From an uncultured Anaerolineae bacterium (GTDB lineage Bacteria; Chloroflexota; Anaerolineae; Anaerolineales; Villigracilaceae), in assembly GCA_903846015.1 (NCBI GenBank), contig CAIMZS010000501.1, forward strand, positions 1-52,309: 52,309 bases of DNA, given 5' to 3'. Numbering within the stretch: position 1 is the first letter of the stretch; every line of letters starts with the position of its first letter. Below are positions 1-52,276 of this stretch, piece by piece. The notes under the pieces were generated by a model. That model was not told the origin of the DNA, did no database searches, and saw only the letters and a program-made list of their open reading frames with translations. Position numbers and translations under genes: made by a program.

Positions 1-839
1 CGCGGCGATCGCGGTCGCGGCTGCGCCCATACCCTGCATGTAATTGATAAGTTGATCGAAGGCCTTGCCGATCTCTCCGATCTCATCCTTGCGCAGACGT
101 ACCTTGTCCTTTTCCTGCTCGCTGGTATCGCGCACCAGGTCGCCGACTGAAAGCGATTTGGCCATTTTTGTGACCAGTCCGAGCGGTGTGGCGATGCTGG
201 TGGAGATGACCACCCCTAACACGGTTGAGAGAACAACTACTACAACCACTATAATGATTGTCAGCGTCATTGTCTGGTTGGCAGTTGCCGTGTTGGCATC
301 CGAAAGAGCCTTGGCCTGTGATTCTTTCATGAGCTGCATCGCATCGATTTTGGCATTGACGTCGGTGGCATTGGCGAATACATCCGCCCGCCGCATCAGC
401 GCCAGAGCTTCATCATTTTTATCCGCCAGTGCAAGCGCCACGATCTGGTCGCGATTGCTAACGAATATTTTGTATAAGCTGCTGAACTCGTCGAAGAGCG
501 CCCTCATCTCGGGCGAAACGATCAATTTTTCATAATCAGCCATTGTCTGACCGATCTGCGTATCGAGTTCCTTGATGGTGTTGGCATATTTCTGTTTATC
601 TTCCGCAGTGGTCGCAAGCAGGATATCGCGATAGTTGATGCGGGTGCGTTGAAAGGCTACCCCCAGATCTGCGAGCTGGCCAAGCGGAATGGTTTGGTTT
701 TGATACAGTTTTGTATCGTTGTCATCCGCTGATTTCAAGCTGACCATTGAATACACCCCCATCAGCGCCGTAATGGCCGCGACGATCAAAAACTGCCGAT
801 CAGTTTTACGCTGGTCTTCATGTTATTGAGAACATTCAT
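1..839 (-). pseudogene. Methyl-accepting chemotaxis protein, N-terminal part, frameshifted
   Basis: Reading on the minus strand from ATG 839 (preceded by GGAGGAG at about 847-853), the protein starts MNVLNNMKTSVKLIGSF and then meets TGA at 786-788. One extra T in the T5 run (A5 at 788-792 on the plus strand) would restore a long frame to the window edge. That frame gives a first membrane segment, a helical periplasmic region of four-helix-bundle type, a second membrane segment rich in I/V (around 225-285) and a HAMP domain (around 60-190). It would be a receptor signalling to the CheA/CheW encoded further right. The signalling domain lies outside the window. The single-base lesion may be a real mutation, a slippage (phase-variable) site or a sequence error; I cannot tell which. 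Confidence 0.8.
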
Positions 840-1045
840 GTCTTACTCCTCCGGGTTTTAATAAAAAAAATTGTTTTGTTACCATACTGGCACGGCCATG
901 CCTGATGAAAATTGAGCGGCCGCGGCTCAGTTCAGGCTTATTTTAATAATCGACCGTTTTATAAAATTTATTATAAGAAATACCCACTTGATATAGAATA
1001 AATATAAAGAGAAGAACTCGTTAATATTGCGTGAAAAATAATTAA
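840..1045. other. AT-rich divergent intergenic region
   Basis: This region separates the chemoreceptor (minus) from the island gene starting near 1129 (plus). It is much more AT-rich than its surroundings between about 930 and 1080. I see a sigma-28-like site for the receptor and a housekeeping-like promoter for the plus gene, and no credible reading frame. Confidence 0.5.
947..973 (-). promoter_or_regulatory. Sigma-28-like promoter for the chemoreceptor
   Basis: On the minus strand, TAAT (970-973), 15 bases and GTCGATTA (947-954) fit the sigma-28 pattern TAAA-N15-GCCGATAA. The -10 differs by one base from the GTCGATAA found at two other sites in this window. The receptor ATG would lie about 100 bases downstream. 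This is the weakest of the three sites. Confidence 0.45.
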
Positions 1046-1073
1046 TTGGTATTCCAAATCTGAAATTTATGCT
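1046..1073 (+). promoter_or_regulatory. Candidate housekeeping promoter before the IS200-like gene
   Basis: TTGGTA (1046-1051), 16 bases and TATGCT (1068-1073) resemble a sigma-70-type promoter. The -10 overlaps the ATG at 1069, so that ATG would be upstream of the transcript. This favours the GTG start at 1129. Confidence 0.35.
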
Positions 1074-1128
1074 ATTATGGTATACATGCCAACCGTATTT
1101 GAGAAGTTTTTCATCTGCTGAGGTCTTC

Positions 1129-1698
1129 GTGAGCCAATTCGAAACATCCTCTGTTGAAACCAGACATATTCCGCACGAAATCGATGATGGGCAGCCGCAA
1201 GATATGCGGCGCATGACCCCTTCGTCAGCTTTTTCGCCCCTGCGCGGCGAGACGCCTGCCTTTGATTTGGCAGAAGATGAGGCTGCCGGGCTGGAGTCTT
1301 TCTCGCCAGTAGTGTGCAATTTATCTTTTGCATGTTTACTGATTCCGCGCTTTAGCGATCATTATTTGACAGGCGATATCACAGAATACTTAGCCCAATG
1401 GCTGAAAGAAATCTGTATTGCATACGGTTGGCGTTTGGACGAACTGGTTGTGCGTCCCGGCTATTTACAGTGGCTTCTAACAGTGCCGCCCGATGCCAAC
1501 CCGGCCCAATTCATGCGCATCATTCGCCAGCACACCTCCCTGAAAATTTTCAATGATTTTCCACGACTTAAACAAAAAAACATGTCCGGCGATTTCTGGG
1601 CCCCGGGTTATTATGTGATTTCTGGCGGCCAACTTCAGCCGCTCGAAAATATTAACACTTTTATCCTGCAGACCCGCCAGCACCAGGGAATTTATTAA
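1129..1698 (+). CDS. IS200-like (Y1 transposase fold) protein, catalytic residues lost
   Basis: A 189-residue protein whose second half follows the IS200/IS605 TnpA (Y1_Tnp) fold; for example, FWAPGYYVISGG matches the family's W(A/G)RGYFVSTVG strand. Every catalytic element looks replaced. The HUH pair reads Y-L-Q in the strand VVRPGYLQWLL. The helix that normally carries the nucleophilic tyrosine (family YI..Q) reads NTFILQ. The N-terminal 60 residues are low-complexity and unlike TnpA. I chose GTG 1129 because GAGG precedes it and a likely -10 overlaps the longer ATG start at 1069. The stop is 17 bases before the NACHT-FGE gene, so the two are probably co-translated. It is better read as a domesticated nucleic-acid-binding protein than an active transposase. 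Confidence 0.6.
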   Translation: MSQFETSSVETRHIPHEIDDGQPQDMRRMTPSSAFSPLRGETPAFDLAEDEAAGLESFSPVVCNLSFACLLIPRFSDHYLTGDITEYLAQWLKEICIAYGWRLDELVVRPGYLQWLLTVPPDANPAQFMRIIRQHTSLKIFNDFPRLKQKNMSGDFWAPGYYVISGGQLQPLENINTFILQTRQHQGIY

Positions 1699-1715
1699 AG
1701 AAACCGTCCCCCAGT

Positions 1716-4223
1716 ATGCCTGACAGCGCAAAAAAACAAACCATCAAACAGAGGGTCAGGCAAACTTTTGCGTTGCTGCGGGAAATGCTTTTAGAAACGC
1801 CTCTAAAACCGGTCAACACGCCGGTTTCGCATGCACCAGCCCCCTTTCAAATTTATCTCGATGATCTGATTGCCGCGCATGAATTGCTGCGTATGCCCGG
1901 CTTTGGCGTAGACGGTACCCCGGCGCAGGTGGCGTTGGATGAATTTTATTTTCCATTGGGTGTGATCGATAAGCGCCTGGGCAAAATATCCCCGGAAAGC
2001 GATGATGGTTTTTATGGGGGTGCGGGGATACTGACGCTTACCGGTATTTTGCAGCGCTACCAGCACCTGGTTCTGACCGGTGGCCCAGGTTCTGGCAAGA
2101 CCACCTTGCTGGCTTATCTTGCCATCAGCTATGCGCGTTCTTACCGGGTCAAATCTGCCGCGCCCGCATCCAGAAAACACTCCGCCTCAATACTCAAAAA
2201 CCGTCTTTTCCCCGACCTGGGGGATGCCCTGCCAATTCTGCTGCGCTTGAGTGATCTGGGCAGTTCCTTGAAATCGACTCATACCCAGGCTGACAGCCCC
2301 GCTTTGTTAATAGATTATCTGCGCACAAGCCATGCTGCGCGTAAATTAGCCCTGCCCACAGATTTTTTTGATTATGTTTTGATTTCCGGGCAGGCTGTGC
2401 TTCTATTGGATGGCCTGGACGAAGTGGCTGATCCGTTCTTGCGCCAGCGCGTTACCAACCTGATCCAAATGGCGGCTGAGTTGTACCCGGCTTGCCGCAT
2501 GATCATCACCTGTCGAAACCTGGATGATCAGCGCGCCGCGCTTGCGGGTCCTCAATTTGGCCTGGCCCAGGTTTGCCCGCTCAGCCCGGCCGAGGCGCGC
2601 CAATTTCTGAGCATTGCCAGCCTGGCAACCGCAGAAACGCCTCTGGCCAGGGATTGGGCAGAAAATTTGGTCAGTGCCCTGGACGAGAACCCACGCCTGG
2701 CTGGTCTGCCAATCACGCCGCTGCTGTTGAGTTTTTCGGCATTGGTCTTTCGAGCTCACCGGCATCTGCCCGCGCGCAGCGCCAGGTTATTGGCATCTGC
2801 TGTGCAGCTTTGGCTTGGTCATCATGGGACAGGTCAGGGCAGCGCACATCAGATCCCCTTCGATGAGCAGCGCCGCTTGTTGGGAAAAATCGCACTTTGG
2901 CTGCAAAGCCATCAGCAGCTTACACTTACCTATGCTGATTTTAGGGCGCTGGTCTTTCCGGAAATCCTGGAGCTTACTTCTGGAGACCCGGCGCACGCGA
3001 ATCAGATTCTGGCAGACTTTCTACTCTGGATTGAGCACCGAGGCATATTCAACGATCTCGGGGCTGGTACCTACGCATTTGCTCAGCGCAGCTTGCAGGA
3101 ATATCTGGCTGCGAGCGCATTAGCGCTGCAGGTTGAAGATGAAATAGGAGCGCGCCGGCCAGAAGGGTGGTGGCGGGAAGTCCTTCTTTTTGAATCTGGT
3201 TTTCCAAAGCATGGTGTCGAAGTAATTGACTCCCTTTTGAAGGCGAATGTTGACAATGGTCCATATTCTGATCAGGCTTTGCTGCTGGCATCGGAATGTT
3301 TCTTCATGTTGGGGGCCTCTTCTTTGCCAGCGGGTGTGCGTACTGAGTTAATCACGCGCTTGAAAAAAATGGCTAACTCGCCTGTTCTGTTATTGGATGA
3401 CGGCGGTCGCCAGCTGCTGCAGCGAAAATACGCGGCTCATCTGGCCCTGGCACGCCTGGGCCGTCCGAGCCTGATAAAACGTTTCTGGAAGCTGCCGTTT
3501 GGCGAACCGGATTGGGTCACCATTCCAGCCGGAGAGTTTTGGATGGGTGAAACGCATCAGCTGCGCAGGCAATTTCTGCCTGAATTCCAAATTGCGCGTG
3601 GCTTAGTGACCAACGCTCAATATGCCATCTATCTGGCTTCAAGCGCCGCGCCGAAGCCAGAATATTGGCGCGCTGGGCAGATACCCGCTGGTATTGAGAA
3701 CCATCCGGTGGTAAATGTAAGCTGGTATGAGGCTCTGGCATACTGCGCCTGGTTGGGGCAAAAGATCGGTAAGCCGGTCTGCCTTCCAAGTGAGGCTGAG
3801 TGGGAAAAAGCCGCTCGCGGTGACCAGGACCAACGTGAATACCCCTGGGGCGCGTGGGCCGATCTGTGTGCCAATACCAGTGAACTGGGCCTGGGTGGCA
3901 CCAGTCCGGTTGGATTATTTCCGCTCGGAGCCAGCCCGTTTGGGCTGCTGGATATGCTTGGAAATGTTCGTGAGTGGACCCGCAGCCTTTATCTTCCGGA
4001 TTATCCAGATGGGTACGATCCTGCGGATGTGAGCCAGGAGAATTTACAGGCCGGGGATGATCAGCCTCGCGTGCTGCGAGGGGGCTCGTTTTATTATCAC
4101 CGCGCCGCCGCTCGGTGTGCCTACCGTCAGCGCTATTATCCGGATTTCAAGTTTGATAATTTCGGTTTTCGCGTGGCGATTTCTTCAGCCCAGGTTTGGG
4201 AAGATATAAAAAAATCGGGCTAA
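1716..4223 (+). CDS. NACHT-type ATPase with C-terminal FGE/C-type-lectin-fold domain
   Basis: An 835-residue STAND-type protein. A NACHT core starts near residue 110: Walker A GGPGSGKTT at 122-130, Walker B LLLDGLDEV near 230, then sensor and helical regions to about 590. From about 597 (WVTIPAGEFWMG) to the end it is a formylglycine-generating-enzyme/sulfatase-modifying domain, with NVSWYEALAYCAW, LPSEAEWEKAARG, LLDMLGNVREW and RVLRGGSF...GFRVA. The first of the two catalytic cysteines of true FGE enzymes is not present, so this is probably a ligand-binding C-type-lectin fold, not an enzyme. The architecture fits signal-sensing ATPases of defence or regulated-death type, and FGE-fold domains are also common DGR targets. 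The final RGGSF...GFR stretch aligns without gaps to the template repeat near 50.8 kb (see findings). Confidence 0.88.
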   Translation: MPDSAKKQTIKQRVRQTFALLREMLLETPLKPVNTPVSHAPAPFQIYLDDLIAAHELLRMPGFGVDGTPAQVALDEFYFPLGVIDKRLGKISPESDDGFYGGAGILTLTGILQRYQHLVLTGGPGSGKTTLLAYLAISYARSYRVKSAAPASRKHSASILKNRLFPDLGDALPILLRLSDLGSSLKSTHTQADSPALLIDYLRTSHAARKLALPTDFFDYVLISGQAVLLLDGLDEVADPFLRQRVTNLIQMAAELYPACRMIITCRNLDDQRAALAGPQFGLAQVCPLSPAEARQFLSIASLATAETPLARDWAENLVSALDENPRLAGLPITPLLLSFSALVFRAHRHLPARSARLLASAVQLWLGHHGTGQGSAHQIPFDEQRRLLGKIALWLQSHQQLTLTYADFRALVFPEILELTSGDPAHANQILADFLLWIEHRGIFNDLGAGTYAFAQRSLQEYLAASALALQVEDEIGARRPEGWWREVLLFESGFPKHGVEVIDSLLKANVDNGPYSDQALLLASECFFMLGASSLPAGVRTELITRLKKMANSPVLLLDDGGRQLLQRKYAAHLALARLGRPSLIKRFWKLPFGEPDWVTIPAGEFWMGETHQLRRQFLPEFQIARGLVTNAQYAIYLASSAAPKPEYWRAGQIPAGIENHPVVNVSWYEALAYCAWLGQKIGKPVCLPSEAEWEKAARGDQDQREYPWGAWADLCANTSELGLGGTSPVGLFPLGASPFGLLDMLGNVREWTRSLYLPDYPDGYDPADVSQENLQAGDDQPRVLRGGSFYYHRAAARCAYRQRYYPDFKFDNFGFRVAISSAQVWEDIKKSG

Positions 4224-4812
4224 TCAGCGTGCAGAATGTATAAAGTGTAATCACAGTGTTATCCCGCAGCTTAGATTGTCTTGCGGAATGGCATCAGGCA
4301 ACCACGAACCAGATGAAAGCTGCGAAGAGGGGGTATTTTTATTCTGTGTTTCACCGGTAGTTTCCTGAGTTTTTGTGAGGGTGGTGAAATTTGTCCAATT
4401 CGCGCCCTTATGCGTGATTAATTTATCTATGTATTCCCAATCAAATCACATTCCATACCTGGTCTTAACCTTGATCTGCTTGATTACGGGATTAGGATGA
4501 TTTGTTGCCATAAACCTATCAGCCACAGGCCGACTTGCGTTCATGTCTTGAGCAGGCGCGATTCGAAATTATCAGAAATGGGGAGCATGGGTGTTTGTTT
4601 TAGCAGCGTGATTTCAGGGGGTGATGGGCAGTGAGACCCCCTCCGGCCTACGGCCACCTCCCCCATTTGAAGAGCACAAATGGGGGAGGAAAAAAGATGG
4701 CCTATGGCCACATCTTCCATTTGAAGGGCACAAATAGGGGCAGGGAAAGACATTTTTAACAGATTAGGCCTACTTAATGTGGATAGCAATATTTCATTCT
4801 CATTTCTTGCGG
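4224..4812. other. Repeat-rich intergenic region
   Basis: About 590 bases without a credible gene, between the NACHT-FGE gene and the DUF1521 gene. The first 390 bases show no clear homology I can name. The last 180 hold two related hairpin units (listed separately). A minus-strand frame of about 90 codons runs across them, but it repeats PICALQM because it translates the repeat, so I do not call it a gene. Confidence 0.6.
4636..4745. repeat. Two REP/MITE-like hairpin units in tandem
   Basis: Unit 1 contains a perfect 13-base inverted repeat, CCTCCCCCATTTG (4657-4669) and CAAATGGGGGAGG (4677-4689), preceded by the palindrome GGCCTACGGCC. Unit 2 (about 4691-4745) repeats the plan with changes: AAGATGGCCTATGGCCACATCTT, then CCATTTGAAGGGCACAAATAGGGG. 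The shared core is CCATTTGAAGRGCACAAAT. Such GC-rich palindromes are typical of dispersed REP- or MITE-type repeats. Whether they recur elsewhere in the genome cannot be seen here. Confidence 0.7.
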
Positions 4813-10498: not shown

Positions 10499-11318
10499 AA
10501 ATAACATTTCCACATCTCTGGCAGGTCGGCTCCATCCATTCAGCCGCCGGATAGCCAGGTTACAGTCACAGCGCTTGTTGGGAGTAGCCGTGATTTTGTT
10601 AGCCAGCCTGCTTCTGAGCGGCTGCGCCACGGCTACTGCTCCGGGTGTCTCACTGACCGTTGATTCGCAATCGCCAAATCCGCAGCAGGTTACTTCGGGT
10701 GTGCAGTTACTGGTACTGATGACGGTGCTCTCCCTGGCGCCGGCGGTCTTGATCCTGGCAACCTCTTTCACTCGCATTGTGATCGTACTCTCGATGGTGC
10801 GCAGCGCCATTGGTACACCAGCCATTCCGCCCAACCAGGTTATCATTGGACTTTCCCTGTTGCTGACTTTTTTTGTCATGGCTCCTGTTTACAAGCAGAT
10901 GGATGAGAAGGCCATTCAGCCGTTTTTGAAAGAACAAATAGACCAGAAGACCGCGCTGAACGAGGCCGCAAAACCTGTGCGGGATTTTATGTTCAAGCAG
11001 ACCCGCGAAAAAGACATCAAGCTTTTTATGGATCTGGGGAATGAACCTCAGCCCGCCACCATCGATGATATCCCGATGGTTTCCTTATTCCCGGCTTTTG
11101 TCATTAGCGAGCTTCGCACGGCATTTACGATGGGTTTTGTAATTTACATTCCATTTTTAGTGATCGACCTGGTGGTAGGCAGTATCCTGCTTTCGATGGG
11201 CATGATGATGCTGCCACCTTCACTGGTTTCGTTGCCCTTCAAAATACTGCTATTTGTGATGGTGGATGGCTGGTATCTGATTGTCCGCAGCCTGGTGTTG
11301 AGTTTTTCTGGAAGTTAG
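10491..11318 (+). CDS. fliP: Flagellar export gate protein FliP, with lipobox-type signal peptide
   Basis: A 275-residue core subunit of the FliP-FliQ-FliR export gate. Typical motifs are ATSFTRIVIVLSMVRSAIGT, NQVIIGLSLLLTFFVMAP, FVISELRTAFTMGF and SILLSMGMMMLPP. I chose ATG 10491 (GGGTGAGG upstream, 8-base overlap with fliO) over 10479. The N-terminal signal peptide ends in LLLSGCATA, a textbook lipobox, where FliP normally carries an ordinary cleaved signal peptide. The mature chain after Cys is Ser/Thr-rich for about 25 residues before the first gate helix. Confidence 0.95.
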   Translation: MIENNISTSLAGRLHPFSRRIARLQSQRLLGVAVILLASLLLSGCATATAPGVSLTVDSQSPNPQQVTSGVQLLVLMTVLSLAPAVLILATSFTRIVIVLSMVRSAIGTPAIPPNQVIIGLSLLLTFFVMAPVYKQMDEKAIQPFLKEQIDQKTALNEAAKPVRDFMFKQTREKDIKLFMDLGNEPQPATIDDIPMVSLFPAFVISELRTAFTMGFVIYIPFLVIDLVVGSILLSMGMMMLPPSLVSLPFKILLFVMVDGWYLIVRSLVLSFSGS

Positions 11319-49040: not shown

Positions 49041-50444
49041 CTAATTTTGCGGAAAATAACGCTGAATTAGTAGGTTTGCCTGTACGCCCGGCGTTCCGGA
49101 TGGATCCAAGCGCAGGGTTTGTTCAAACTCATCCTTTGCCTGGGCTTTGCGTTCCGTCTGAAAGTAGAGCAGCCCCAGGTGAAAGTGATACAAAGCCAGT
49201 TGGGATGGAGCTGCCAGGTTGATGGCTGTGTTGAACGACACTTCGGCGGCCTGCCATTGTCCAATCGCCAACTGCGCGCGCCCGAGCATATCGATATAAT
49301 CCGGGTTCTTAGGTTCCAGCGCAAAGGCTCTCAGGGCGGCATTCAGACCATAATCTTCAATGAAGGCATCCTTTTCCACGCAGAAGGCTGCCAGCGCGTA
49401 CCAGTAACCGGCCTGGTCAGGGGCGATGTTGACAGCTTTTATATAGGCGTTCAATGCGGCTGCGAGATCGGTTTGGGCCCCGGCCAACGCCAGCCACCAG
49501 GCCGGGTTGGATGGTTCGATCTGTACTGCCGACTGGAATTCGGGCACTGCCTTTTTGAGTTCGCCCTCATTTTGCCAGTAATTCCCCAACATGGCATGGA
49601 TGGCGGCTGAATTCCCATCCAGCCTGATGGCGTTTTCCAGGGCGGAAAGTGACCCGACGCTGTGGTTGTGTTGGCGCGCGCTGCCCAGCCAGGCCCAGGC
49701 GCTGGCATACTGCGGATTGGCTTGAGCGGCGCGCTCAAAGGCTTGTTCTGCCAGCCGCCATTCACCCATGCCCGCCAGCGCCTGCCCACACAGGGCCAGA
49801 AGGTAGGCCGGCTCATCGGTTGGAGCCGGGGTCTGCAGCGCAGTGATCAACTGTTCCAGCCGCGCGGCCGCCTGCGGGGATTGGGTGGCCGCGTTTTGCA
49901 GCAGACTCAGCGCAGCAGGTGAGGCTTCTGCCGCCAGCAAGCGCCCCATCCATTCACTGGCTTGCGGGTTGGTTGGGTCAGAATCCAGCCACAGGTTTAA
50001 TACGCGCCGTTCAGCGCTGTATTTCTGAGCGGCATGGTACTGCTGTGCCAGGCGCGGGTAGACCTGCGCGGGGATTGTTTTGTATTGCAGGATGGTTTCC
50101 CATTCGGTCACGGCCCTGGTAGTATCGCCCGTGGCGAGATAGGCATCCCCGAGCGCGACCAGGCCTGCCGGGCTGAGCGCCTGGTTTGCGCGCGCGCTTT
50201 CCAGCAGCCGCATCGCCCGGGATGGCTCAGCGCCGGCGCGCAGCCCGGCTTTTTCAAACAAGTCCGCGCGCCAGAACAGCAGCCTGGCGGCTGTCTCAAA
50301 ATCTGCGGAGGCTTCGGCATCGGTGGCAGCCCTGGCGGCTCTTTCAAGGCAGGCGTAGCCGTAGGCGAGGGGCGGCAAGACAGCCAGCCCGGCCAAAAGC
50401 AGCAATATCAACAGTCGTTCGCGCCATTTCTTCACGGGCTTCAT
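49041..50444 (-). CDS. Membrane-anchored TPR protein
   Basis: A 467-residue protein with an N-terminal membrane helix (RLLILLLLAGLAVLPPLAY) and then about ten tetratricopeptide-like repeats. Examples are ALGDAYLATGDTTRAVTEWE, MGEWRLAEQAFERAAQANPQYASAWAWLG, EGELKKAVPEFQSAVQIEPSNPAWW and HLGLLYFQTERKAQAKDEFE. TPR arrays bind partner proteins; no partner is evident. It lies 26 bases upstream of the lipoprotein gene on the minus strand and may be co-transcribed with it. Confidence 0.88.
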   Translation of the reverse strand: MKPVKKWRERLLILLLLAGLAVLPPLAYGYACLERAARAATDAEASADFETAARLLFWRADLFEKAGLRAGAEPSRAMRLLESARANQALSPAGLVALGDAYLATGDTTRAVTEWETILQYKTIPAQVYPRLAQQYHAAQKYSAERRVLNLWLDSDPTNPQASEWMGRLLAAEASPAALSLLQNAATQSPQAAARLEQLITALQTPAPTDEPAYLLALCGQALAGMGEWRLAEQAFERAAQANPQYASAWAWLGSARQHNHSVGSLSALENAIRLDGNSAAIHAMLGNYWQNEGELKKAVPEFQSAVQIEPSNPAWWLALAGAQTDLAAALNAYIKAVNIAPDQAGYWYALAAFCVEKDAFIEDYGLNAALRAFALEPKNPDYIDMLGRAQLAIGQWQAAEVSFNTAINLAAPSQLALYHFHLGLLYFQTERKAQAKDEFEQTLRLDPSGTPGVQANLLIQRYFPQN

Positions 50445-50605
50445 TATAAGGGAGCCTGACCAATCTGGTTGGAACTGATTTGGGCTGGGGCGGGTAATTT
50501 TTTGGGGGAAATTAAGGCATTGGATGGGCTGTGTAATGCCGGCTGGAACCGGGACCAGCGCGGATTGAGGTTGATTGTGATGATGAAGGTCTGGGTAAAT
50601 GGGCA
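50445..50605. other. Intergenic region between the TPR gene and the DGR
   Basis: About 160 bases with no gene I can support. A plus-strand frame of 64 codons crosses it without RBS or coding character. It ends in a strong plus-oriented terminator. Confidence 0.5.
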
Positions 50606-50643
50606 GGCGGCTTCAGGAAATTACCGGGAAGCCGCCTTTTTTT
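50606..50643 (+). terminator. Rho-independent-type hairpin downstream of the DGR template
   Basis: GGCGGCTTC (50606-50614) and GAAGCCGCC (50628-50636) form a perfect stem with a 13-base loop, followed on the plus strand by seven T. No plus-strand gene precedes it. For the minus-strand DGR transcript it would be a stable hairpin about 105 bases after the template, without a U run. Confidence 0.75.
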
Positions 50644-50746
50644 GTATTTGCCCGGTCTGTTGAGAACCGGCCAGGAAGGAACCGCGCTAACTTTCTCCGG
50701 CGCGCCGCTGTCCGTGGACAAGGGGCATCCTGCCATTTAATAAAAG

Positions 50747-50851
50747 TTATCGGGCGCAACGAAATCCGTTGTTGTTGTTCCTGTTGTCGGGGGTGTTCCT
50801 GTTGCGATTAGACACACGCGAGTTGTTCTCATTGTTGTTCCAGGACCCGCC
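50747..50851 (-). repeat. DGR template repeat (TR), adenine-rich
   Basis: Read on the minus strand, these 105 bases contain 35 adenines and encode, in one frame, GGSWNNNENNSRVSNRNR, then NTPDNRNNNNGFRCAR and TAA. Thirteen of 35 codons are AAC or AAT. Such codons are the classic DGR choice because adenine mutagenesis can yield many amino acids but no stop codon. The encoded pattern is the end of an FGE/C-type-lectin-fold domain, the usual DGR target fold. The frame is not preceded by a start and is not itself a gene. The true left boundary of TR may extend somewhat past 50851. The avd stop codon (50829-50831) lies inside it. Confidence 0.9.
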
Positions 50852-51236
50852 CCGCTGGTGGTTCCTCCCCGCAAACGGCAGATGGATCTGCCGGGGTTGC
50901 TTCTTTTAGCCTGTTCAGCCAACTACCCAGAATTTTGCCAATTTCATTGACTTTCTCGGAGGCAGCCTGGTATTGTTGAAAGCTCATCGTTTTGGTATCT
51001 TTGGCCGCTCGAATCAGCATTCGCAGGCGTTCCAGTTCAAGGTCGGCTTCTTGAAGCAAAAAACGGCGGTTTTGGGCCCGCGCAGCGTGCAGAATATGAT
51101 CATAGAACCGCATCACGCTTTCTTCGATGCGAGCTGCCAGCCGAAAACGCTGTTCTTTGGGAAATTTAGCCAGGGTCTGCTCCAACCAGACCAGCAGATC
51201 ATAGGTCTTAACAAAGATGGGCGATGATCCACTCAT
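50829..51236 (-). CDS. avd: DGR accessory variability determinant (Avd), four-helix bundle
   Basis: A 135-residue protein of the Avd family that binds the DGR reverse transcriptase and template RNA. The core is typical: IFVKTYDLLVWLEQTLAKFP, QRFRLAARIEESVMRFYDHI, ADLELERLRMLIRAAKDTKT and YQAASEKVNEIGKILGSWL, four amphipathic basic helices. The last 20 residues are a tail read through the upstream part of the template repeat, so its stop TGA falls inside the TR. ATG 51236 overlaps the reverse transcriptase stop (ATGA at 51233-51236); a longer in-frame start at 51275 is less likely. Confidence 0.92.
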   Translation of the reverse strand: MSGSSPIFVKTYDLLVWLEQTLAKFPKEQRFRLAARIEESVMRFYDHILHAARAQNRRFLLQEADLELERLRMLIRAAKDTKTMSFQQYQAASEKVNEIGKILGSWLNRLKEATPADPSAVCGEEPPAGRVLEQQ

Positions 51237-52276
51237 AGAGATTTTCCCGATAAGACTGCCCGGCGCAGTCCCCATGTGTCACCATGCCCGGCATGTGCCA
51301 CCCAACCCTGCACGGATAAAGTCACTTTTTCTCGTTCCAATTTTCCCGCGGCGCAGGCCCGCAGGTTTTGCCAGAATTTCCGACGGAAGGCATAGCCACG
51401 CGCCGGTTTCAGGCGGCGATGATCCGGGTAAACGATGAAACCAAGAAATGGCAGGCCTTCGTTTGCCGGGCGTATGGGTGTGGCTTCTTCGTGAATGGTA
51501 ATCCGCAGGGATGCCAAAAACTGGATGATGGCATCCTTCCATGCGTGCAGAATGGTTTTGTTGTCATCAAAAAGCAAACTATCATCCACGTAGCGGATAT
51601 AACAATGGCATTTCAACTGGCGTTTGACAAACTGGTCGAGTTCGTTCAGGTAGACATTTGCCCAAAATTGACTGGTCAGGTTGCCAATCGGCAGCCCTCT
51701 GGGTCGATTGGCAGAAAAAAGGTCATCACCAGTGAACCAGCGCATATCATACTCTTCATCCAAGACCCCCACCCCGGTATCAACGATTTGCCCGGCCAGC
51801 CACAGCACTTTTTCATCCGGGATGACTTTTGCCAGTAGGGTTTTCAGAATGGCATGGTCAATACTAGGAAAAAACTGGCGCACATCACATTGCAGGGAAT
51901 AGGCATTACGGCGCAAATAGCAGGTGCACCGGTCGAGCGCGCGGTGGGTACCTTTGCCTTTGCGGTTGGCATAACTGTCAAAAATAAACCGCCGCTCGAA
52001 AAATGGCTCCATAACACCCACCAGGGCATGATGCACCACGCGATCCCGGAAGGGCGCGGCGGAAATCAACCTGCGTTTGGCTTCGGTGCGGTAAAAGCTG
52101 TAATACCCGCCGGGTTGATAGCTGTGGTTGAGCAAGCTTTCCTGAATTTGGAACAATTCTGGCTCCAGGTTGCGCTCAAAAATTGCTATTTCTTCCTGAC
52201 CGCGTTTGCCTTTTCGGGCGCGCAGAAAAGCGTTATAGAGATTTTCGAAACTACACAACTGCTCATAAAGTGTCAT
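51233..52276 (-). CDS. DGR-type reverse transcriptase
   Basis: A 347-residue reverse transcriptase. Motifs in order: AEAKRRLISAAPFRDRVVHHAL (RT1-2 region), the catalytic Asp131 in LQCDVRQFFPSIDH, RGLPIGNLTSQFWANVYLNE (residues 194-212; the IGxxxSQ form of motif 4 is the DGR hallmark), YIRYVDDSLLF (YVDD at 229-232) and LPFLGFIVYPDHRRLKPA. No maturase or endonuclease domain is present, as expected for DGR RTs. It copies template RNA into cDNA with errors at adenines. avd is coupled by ATGA. No Shine-Dalgarno is evident before ATG 52276, and only 33 bases upstream are in the window. Confidence 0.95.
   Translation of the reverse strand: MTLYEQLCSFENLYNAFLRARKGKRGQEEIAIFERNLEPELFQIQESLLNHSYQPGGYYSFYRTEAKRRLISAAPFRDRVVHHALVGVMEPFFERRFIFDSYANRKGKGTHRALDRCTCYLRRNAYSLQCDVRQFFPSIDHAILKTLLAKVIPDEKVLWLAGQIVDTGVGVLDEEYDMRWFTGDDLFSANRPRGLPIGNLTSQFWANVYLNELDQFVKRQLKCHCYIRYVDDSLLFDDNKTILHAWKDAIIQFLASLRITIHEEATPIRPANEGLPFLGFIVYPDHRRLKPARGYAFRRKFWQNLRACAAGKLEREKVTLSVQGWVAHAGHGDTWGLRRAVLSGKSL

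What the first reader, a model, noticed from the sequence alone, without database searches (positions are those of the whole stretch)
50747..52276. A diversity-generating retroelement with its target outside the recognisable window
The minus strand carries, in order, a DGR-type reverse transcriptase (IGNLTSQ, YVDD), an Avd protein and a 105-base template repeat with 35 adenines and 13 AAC/AAT codons. All three core parts are seen directly. RT-avd-TR with the template at the 3' end differs from the better-known target-avd-TR-RT order. No near-identical variable repeat occurs anywhere else in this window, so the target probably lies beyond the right edge or elsewhere in the genome (remote targeting).
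Basis: partly seen in the sequence, partly recalled or inferred. Interest (0 to 1): 0.92.

Follow-up and report, generated by a model that had tools for sequence, protein, structure and literature searches.

The report
Targeted-mutation retroelement with a distant target
This bacterial DNA carries the machinery of a diversity-generating retroelement, a known kind of targeted mutator; the gene it most likely mutates was found on another piece of the same genome, and beside its template lies a folded RNA shared by related elements.

Summary
In detail: the minus strand carries a DGR-type reverse transcriptase (RT), Avd and a 113-base template repeat (TR). Contig C659 of the same assembly holds a variable repeat (VR) identical at 78 of 78 non-adenine positions and changed at 20 of 35 adenines. 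It ends a 703-aa CHAT-FGE gene and is followed by a truncated RT copy, so the likeliest reading is diversification in trans of a degenerate locus, as published for Thiohalocapsa PB-PSB1. The gene order is not unusual: of 80 named RT relatives 57 have Avd behind RT, and 41 of these also a VR within 400 bp in front of RT; a second, local target is therefore expected just past the window's edge but was not found. Beyond the finding, the stretch behind the TR is a structured RNA with strong covariation in relatives and no Rfam match. Its strand pairs with the TR end, but at one site fits VR (16 of 16 pairs) and not TR (0 of 16). The DGR is a new member of a known kind; the RNA pattern is the more interesting part.

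The parts
51233..52276 (-). DGR-type reverse transcriptase, 347 aa (IGNLTSQ, YVDD); the contig ends 33 bases in front of it
50829..51236 (-). avd, 135 codons; its ATG overlaps the RT stop codon
50743..50855 (-). Template repeat, 113 bases, 35 A; overlaps the last 27 bases of avd; its VR is at contig C659:2273-2385(+) (L011)
50602..50767 (-). Stretch matched by RNA model R1: TR 3' end plus structured spacer RNA (this sequence is one of the 14 the model was built from)
50743..50752 (-). P1, 5' strand = last ten bases of the TR; the third base (A) is the fixed TR-A/VR-C site
50685..50694 (-). P1, 3' strand in the spacer; its G opposite the fixed site pairs with the VR base, not with the TR base
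50709..50720 (-). P2, small hairpin with a CACG loop
50650..50672 (-). P3 hairpin, followed by the conserved CAAATA
50606..50636 (-). P4, terminal hairpin behind an A-run; not part of the modelled pairs
   Evidence: (region folds better than mononucleotide shuffles, z below -2 in 39 of 44 loci)

Best explanation
A chromosomal diversity-generating retroelement of a bacterium that is most likely an Anaerolineales (Chloroflexota), with RT, Avd and TR in one cluster. Inferred mechanism: an RNA holding the end of avd, the TR and the structured spacer is bound by RT-Avd; cDNA starts at the 3' end of the TR, is copied with errors at adenines, and replaces the VR at the 3' end of target genes. Shown here: the parts, an adenine-restricted TR-VR pair, and the RNA structure by covariation. 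Inferred: activity, and that the VR on contig C659, in a CHAT-FGE protein beside a truncated RT, is diversified in trans by this element. A local target just past the right edge is predicted. The CHAT-FGE product is probably a hypervariable sensor joined to a caspase-like effector, as proposed for similar proteins in multicellular bacteria.
For: TR-VR pair with 78 of 78 non-A positions equal and 20 of 35 A positions changed; Avd over curated cut-offs; RT closest in the PDB to an RT-Avd complex and, in a tree of 84 RTs, grouped with L062 and L064 (support 1.0), which have TR/VR pairs of their own. Trans reading: DNA of the two RT copies is 75.6% identical over 254 bases, yet TR and VR agree at all non-A positions, so the VR looks rewritten from this TR more recently than the loci parted. 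Target domains: CHAT and FGE-sulfatase, next but one gene Trypco1. Local target: order in relatives.
Against: No reads or strains could be compared, so activity is not shown. The assembly is a bin with 5.85% contamination; C659 is a 7.3 kb contig and could be misbinned. No contig was found that joins the right end of C501. Two of the 20 A changes lie in the last ten bases and are better read as a fixed difference than as mutagenesis.
Confidence: 0.88

Rival explanations
1. The C659 VR was diversified by its own RT and TR before these were lost; the C501 element never acted on it, and the match reflects common descent of two TRs.
For: C659 has an RT fragment behind its VR (first 76 aa), so it once had machinery of its own. 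In PB-PSB1 some degenerate loci are explained this way (PMC10907252).
Against: RT DNA of the two loci differs at about a quarter of positions (75.6% identity over 254 bases), whereas 0 of 78 non-A positions of TR and VR differ.
Confidence: 0.2
2. The whole element is a relic: parts are preserved but it no longer mutagenises anything.
For: No activity data. Decayed relatives are seen: cut RTs in C659, L142 and L159, a remnant on C271, Avd with a stop on C414.
Against: RT and Avd of C501 are open over full length, and the spacer still forms the conserved pairs.
Confidence: 0.15
3. The RT is a group II intron, retron or antiviral RT and the A-rich repeat is chance.
For: The best NCBIfam hit is the group II RT model (121 bits, cut-off 300, so not accepted), and the Pfam hit is the general RVT_1.
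Against: PDB best match is the RT of an RT-Avd complex; (I/V/L)GxxxSQ is the published DGR mark (PMC3521204, passage); Avd over cut-offs; adenine-only TR-VR differences.
Confidence: 0.01

Closest known systems
[quoted passage not shown] parts 1-3 of 9 and passages seen)
   Same: Several DGR loci in one genome, degenerate loci whose VR matches a TR elsewhere at all non-A sites, targets with CHAT or NACHT domains, a Trypco gene at the locus of the CHAT target
   Different: Here the target joins CHAT to FGE without TIR, the neighbour is Trypco1 and not Trypco2, and the host is an uncultured Chloroflexota lineage; clade membership was not tested
Bordetella phage BPP-1 DGR (PMC3240598 and PMC12875486, passages seen)
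   Same: RT, Avd, TR, VR; TR followed by a spacer that folds, and an IMH/IMH* difference between VR and TR
   Different: There avd and TR precede RT; here they follow it. I did not compare the spacer sequences
FGS/FGE-linked conflict systems with DGRs (PMC7159879, passages seen)
   Same: FGE-type variable domains in proteins linked to conflict systems and DGRs
   Different: A MoxR-vWA ternary system was not looked for here
DUSEL4 archaeal DGRs (PMC4372165, passages seen)
   Same: A fixed difference between IMH (VR) and IMH* (TR) with A in the TR copy
   Different: Another motif and lineage; no spacer pairing is described in the passages seen

Membership tests
Diversity-generating retroelement | RT of the DGR type with (I/V/L)GxxxSQ | tested here: met
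   IGNLTSQ in the ORF; motif as published (PMC3521204, passage); PDB best match 8ub7_A, E 2.5e-36
Diversity-generating retroelement | TR and VR that differ only at TR adenines | tested here: met
   0 of 78 non-A and 20 of 35 A positions differ
Diversity-generating retroelement | Accessory protein Avd | tested here: met
   Over the cut-offs of NF033474 and PF22296
Diversity-generating retroelement | VR in a C-type-lectin-like or FGE fold of the target | tested here: met
   FGE-sulfatase E 1.9e-67, residues 447-703 of 703; Treponema denticola variable protein 1 among PDB matches. By sequence, not by structure
Diversity-generating retroelement | Hairpin-forming repeat behind the VR | tested here: inconclusive
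   Looked at by eye only: C271 shows an inverted repeat there, C659 no clear one
Diversity-generating retroelement | Adenine mutagenesis and homing in cells | not testable with these tools
   No reads, no bench
DGR RT clade 5 (Roux et al.) | RT falls in clade 5 of the published tree | not tested
   The published tree sequences were not at hand; my tree holds 82 related RTs and two non-DGR RTs of the same genome as outgroups
Conflict (immune) system with CHAT effector | CHAT domain in the target and a Trypco gene nearby | tested here: met
   CHAT E 1.9e-30 and Trypco1 E 1.7e-18 on C659
Conflict (immune) system with CHAT effector | Protection against invaders | not testable with these tools
   Only domain homology

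The most novel reading that the evidence does not exclude
The TR-spacer RNA of this DGR lineage is a conserved RNA family whose spacer strand pairs with the TR end but is built to fit the VR at one discriminating site: the VR base (C) pairs with an invariant spacer G in 16 of 16 pairs, the TR base (A in 15, G in 1) in 0 of 16. The RNA would mark where cDNA starts and also help to tell target from template, so that the TR is not overwritten. Free-standing copies of the RNA could work in trans.
Probability: 0.35. Interest if true: 0.75.

Novelty: new member of a known kind. Interest (0 to 1): 0.5.

Why it matters
It adds a DGR of an uncultured Chloroflexota lineage with a likely trans target that joins a hypervariable FGE domain to a caspase-like CHAT domain, in line with the idea of diversified sensors in bacterial immunity. 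More generally, the RNA model finds DGR templates where no VR is assembled, and a single fixed TR/VR site facing an invariant spacer G turns the question of how a DGR tells template from target into a one-base test.

Tried and rejected
Other FGE genes of the genome as VRs of this TR: C19, C271 and C181 have 8 to 15 non-A differences and are not accepted as its present targets (30 of the 32 FGE matches were scored, two of them being TRs). A search for the missing local target through the contig end found only C659 and a 56-base remnant on C271 worth mention.

Two attempts to test P1 with free duplex energies gave no signal (z -0.28, 44 loci; z +0.36, 32 loci, 19 of 51 left out). In both I cut the spacer segment badly (unequal lengths, the wrong place in many loci), so I do not hold them against P1, but they are negative results; the column-wise counts are the evidence for it. 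RNAalifold on 51 loci aligned automatically recovered only the terminal hairpin. Rfam gave no related family. The crude CAAATA pattern was absent from 21 of 72 loci, and at E up to 1 model R1 does not list the TR regions of C431 or C414 of this very genome, so the RNA is not universal in this form.

That RT fragments joined to the spacer are a purposeful minimal form was dropped: two cases (L142, L159) are too few, and simple deletion explains them.

Full report
What is there. The window is one whole contig (C501, 52,309 bases) of a 6.5 Mb assembly in 662 contigs, 97.4% complete, 5.85% contaminated. Its right end carries, on the minus strand, an RT of 347 aa, an avd gene whose ATG overlaps the RT stop, and a TR that begins inside the last 27 bases of avd. 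Avd passes the curated cut-offs of NCBIfam and Pfam. The RT's best match among solved structures is 8ub7_A (E 2.5e-36; next, a group II RT, 1.4e-16). In a tree of 84 RTs it groups with L062 and L064 (support 1.0), which have TR/VR pairs of their own. A genome of the same family, G012, has a contig of the same length (98,671 bases) as one of a named Anaerolineales bin, so the organism is most likely an Anaerolineales; this is inference.

The target. A search of the whole assembly with 101 bases of the TR, every A replaced by N and 3 mismatches allowed, gave two places, both with 0 mismatches: the TR and C659:2277-2377. Over 113 bases, 78 of 78 non-A positions agree and 20 of 35 A positions differ (Fisher p 4e-13). 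Two of the 20 lie in the last ten bases and are better read as an IMH/IMH* difference than as mutagenesis. The VR ends a 703-aa ORF with CHAT and FGE-sulfatase domains; behind it come an RT fragment (first 76 aa, 74%) and a Trypco1 gene. C659 is thus a degenerate DGR locus whose VR fits the TR of another locus. As RT DNA of the two loci is 75.6% identical over 254 bases but TR and VR agree at all non-A positions, copying in trans is the best reading. The same pattern is published for Thiohalocapsa PB-PSB1, where VRs of DGR 4 and 5 match the TR of DGR 2 at all non-A sites (PMC10907252).

Other DGR loci of the genome. C431 has, in order, NACHT-FGE, RT, Avd, TR, NACHT-FGE, with 1 and 2 non-A differences between TR and the two VRs; its TR also fits VRs on C118 (two) and C58 with one non-A difference each. 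C414 has NACHT-FGE, Avd with one stop and a TR (3 non-A differences of 82), and no RT match on its 3.6 kb. The genome has 32 FGE matches, among them these two TRs of C501 and C431 and some split genes; of 30 scored, the others fit none of the three TRs with fewer than 8 non-A differences over a full-length alignment.

Gene order. In 80 named RT relatives (one scan of genome contigs; best 80 of 171 kept), Avd lies behind RT on the same strand in 57, before it in 13, on the other strand in 4, and was not found in 6. In 43 of the 57 a TR/VR pair was found with the TR behind RT, in 41 of these with a VR within 400 bp in front of RT; in the other 14 no pair was found. Contig ends cluster at that place: of 47 loci with an upstream contig end within 8 kb, 11 end within 350 bp of RT (2.06 expected if uniform, p 4.5e-6; one of the 11 ends inside RT), against 3 of 65 downstream (2.84 expected). 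Hypervariable VRs or repeated target genes can both break assemblies, and a uniform expectation is simple, so this is only indirect evidence of activity.

The spacer RNA. Behind the TR many relatives share TTCC, a hairpin, CAAATA, an A-run and a terminal hairpin; the CAAATA pattern was seen in 51 of 72 loci with a located TR. On 14 hand-picked sequences, window included, a structure that I wrote by inspecting that alignment has 87.0% of cells paired, covariation 0.637 against 0.263 +/- 0.028 in shuffles (0 of 500 reach it), and at most 0.180 when slid. As the structure came from these sequences, the fairer test is 18 matches not used in building model R1: 89.1% paired, covariation 0.534 against 0.176 +/- 0.020, 0 of 500; slid at most 0.127. 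That alignment was fitted to the model, and 12 of its 30 sources were chosen because they had matched. In 88 sources (1.0 Mb) R1 has 22 matches below E 1e-4, 13 of them training sequences; of the other 9, 8 lie just behind Avd and one (L142) behind a cut RT. In its own genome R1 lists C501 (E 3e-25) and three weak matches, not the TR regions of C431 and C414. Rfam 15 has no such family at E up to 10 in window 50400-51300, nor at gathering threshold in 15 relatives' loci. P1 joins the last ten TR bases with the spacer. That the BPP-1 spacer folds, recruits RT-Avd and primes cDNA is published (PMC12875486, introduction passage).

The discriminating site. In 16 TR-VR pairs of 15 loci that fit R1, column 18 of the TR (A in 15, G in L084) is unpaired with the spacer G in 16 of 16, while the VR base, C, pairs in 16 of 16; column 19 is paired in 8 of 16 TRs and 16 of 16 VRs; columns 22 to 25 favour the TR (L105 could not be scored). 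Over all loci 88 TR-VR pairs were made and 73 could be scored (15 left out): the first TR adenine about 6 or more bases past the GG..TTTCG motif faces C in 64 VRs, A in 8, T in 1, whereas 541 adenines before the motif face A in 271, T in 120, G in 114 and C in 36. Related loci are not independent, so the p value of that call overstates the case, and some of the 8 may be the wrong adenine; still, a random outcome is excluded. L142, a close relative, is a case against: its VR has A at this site, but its own TR is lost. Fixed IMH/IMH* differences with A in the TR copy are known in DUSEL4 archaea (PMC4372165, passage). The fit of spacer to VR was not met in the listings and passages seen, a library without most subscription journals.

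Function. The CHAT-FGE product would be a sensor with a hypervariable surface joined to a caspase-like peptidase. This rests on domain homology and on the proposal in PMC10907252 that such targets are antigen sensors, which that paper itself calls untested.

Verdict. A real DGR, ordinary in kind, with a likely trans target. Its gene order is not unusual. The structured spacer and its fit to the VR are the part worth following.

Noticed in passing
window 1716-4223 (+): A NACHT-FGE ORF (835 aa) whose end, about 4075-4190, reads like a hypermutated VR (many Y, D, H, F at usual Asn places). It fits none of the three TRs found in this genome (best 44 of 69 non-A).
   Followed up: partly
L142 (G034:C147) 1-4603: AAA-FGE target with VR, then an RT cut after aa 113 (88% to the window's RT) and joined straight to a spacer block of 35 bases identical to the window's; RT end, Avd and TR are gone.
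   Followed up: partly
L159 (G052:C8) 954-1712: A second RT (aa 1-195) cut and joined to the very 3' end of a TR plus a complete spacer RNA (R1 E 8e-13).
   Followed up: partly
L201 (G164:C17:148501-148673): A free-standing shortened TR with complete spacer RNA; no RT or Avd within the 3.2 kb fetched. The only RT match in that genome is on another contig, C19.
   Followed up: partly
L013 (G000:C271) 10858-11109 (-): A solo fragment of FGE end, VR-like stretch and the first codons of an RT, 2.5 kb from a full FGE lipoprotein gene whose end is 93% identical over 166 bases.
   Followed up: partly
L021 (G000:C499:49127-49372): An RT C-terminal remnant (aa 263-345, 44%) close to an FGE gene at C499:47906-48670, perhaps another decayed DGR locus.
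   Followed up: no
L062-L141, upstream of RT: Contig ends of public assemblies pile up at the VR: 11 of 47 upstream ends within 350 bp of RT, 2.06 expected if uniform.
   Followed up: partly
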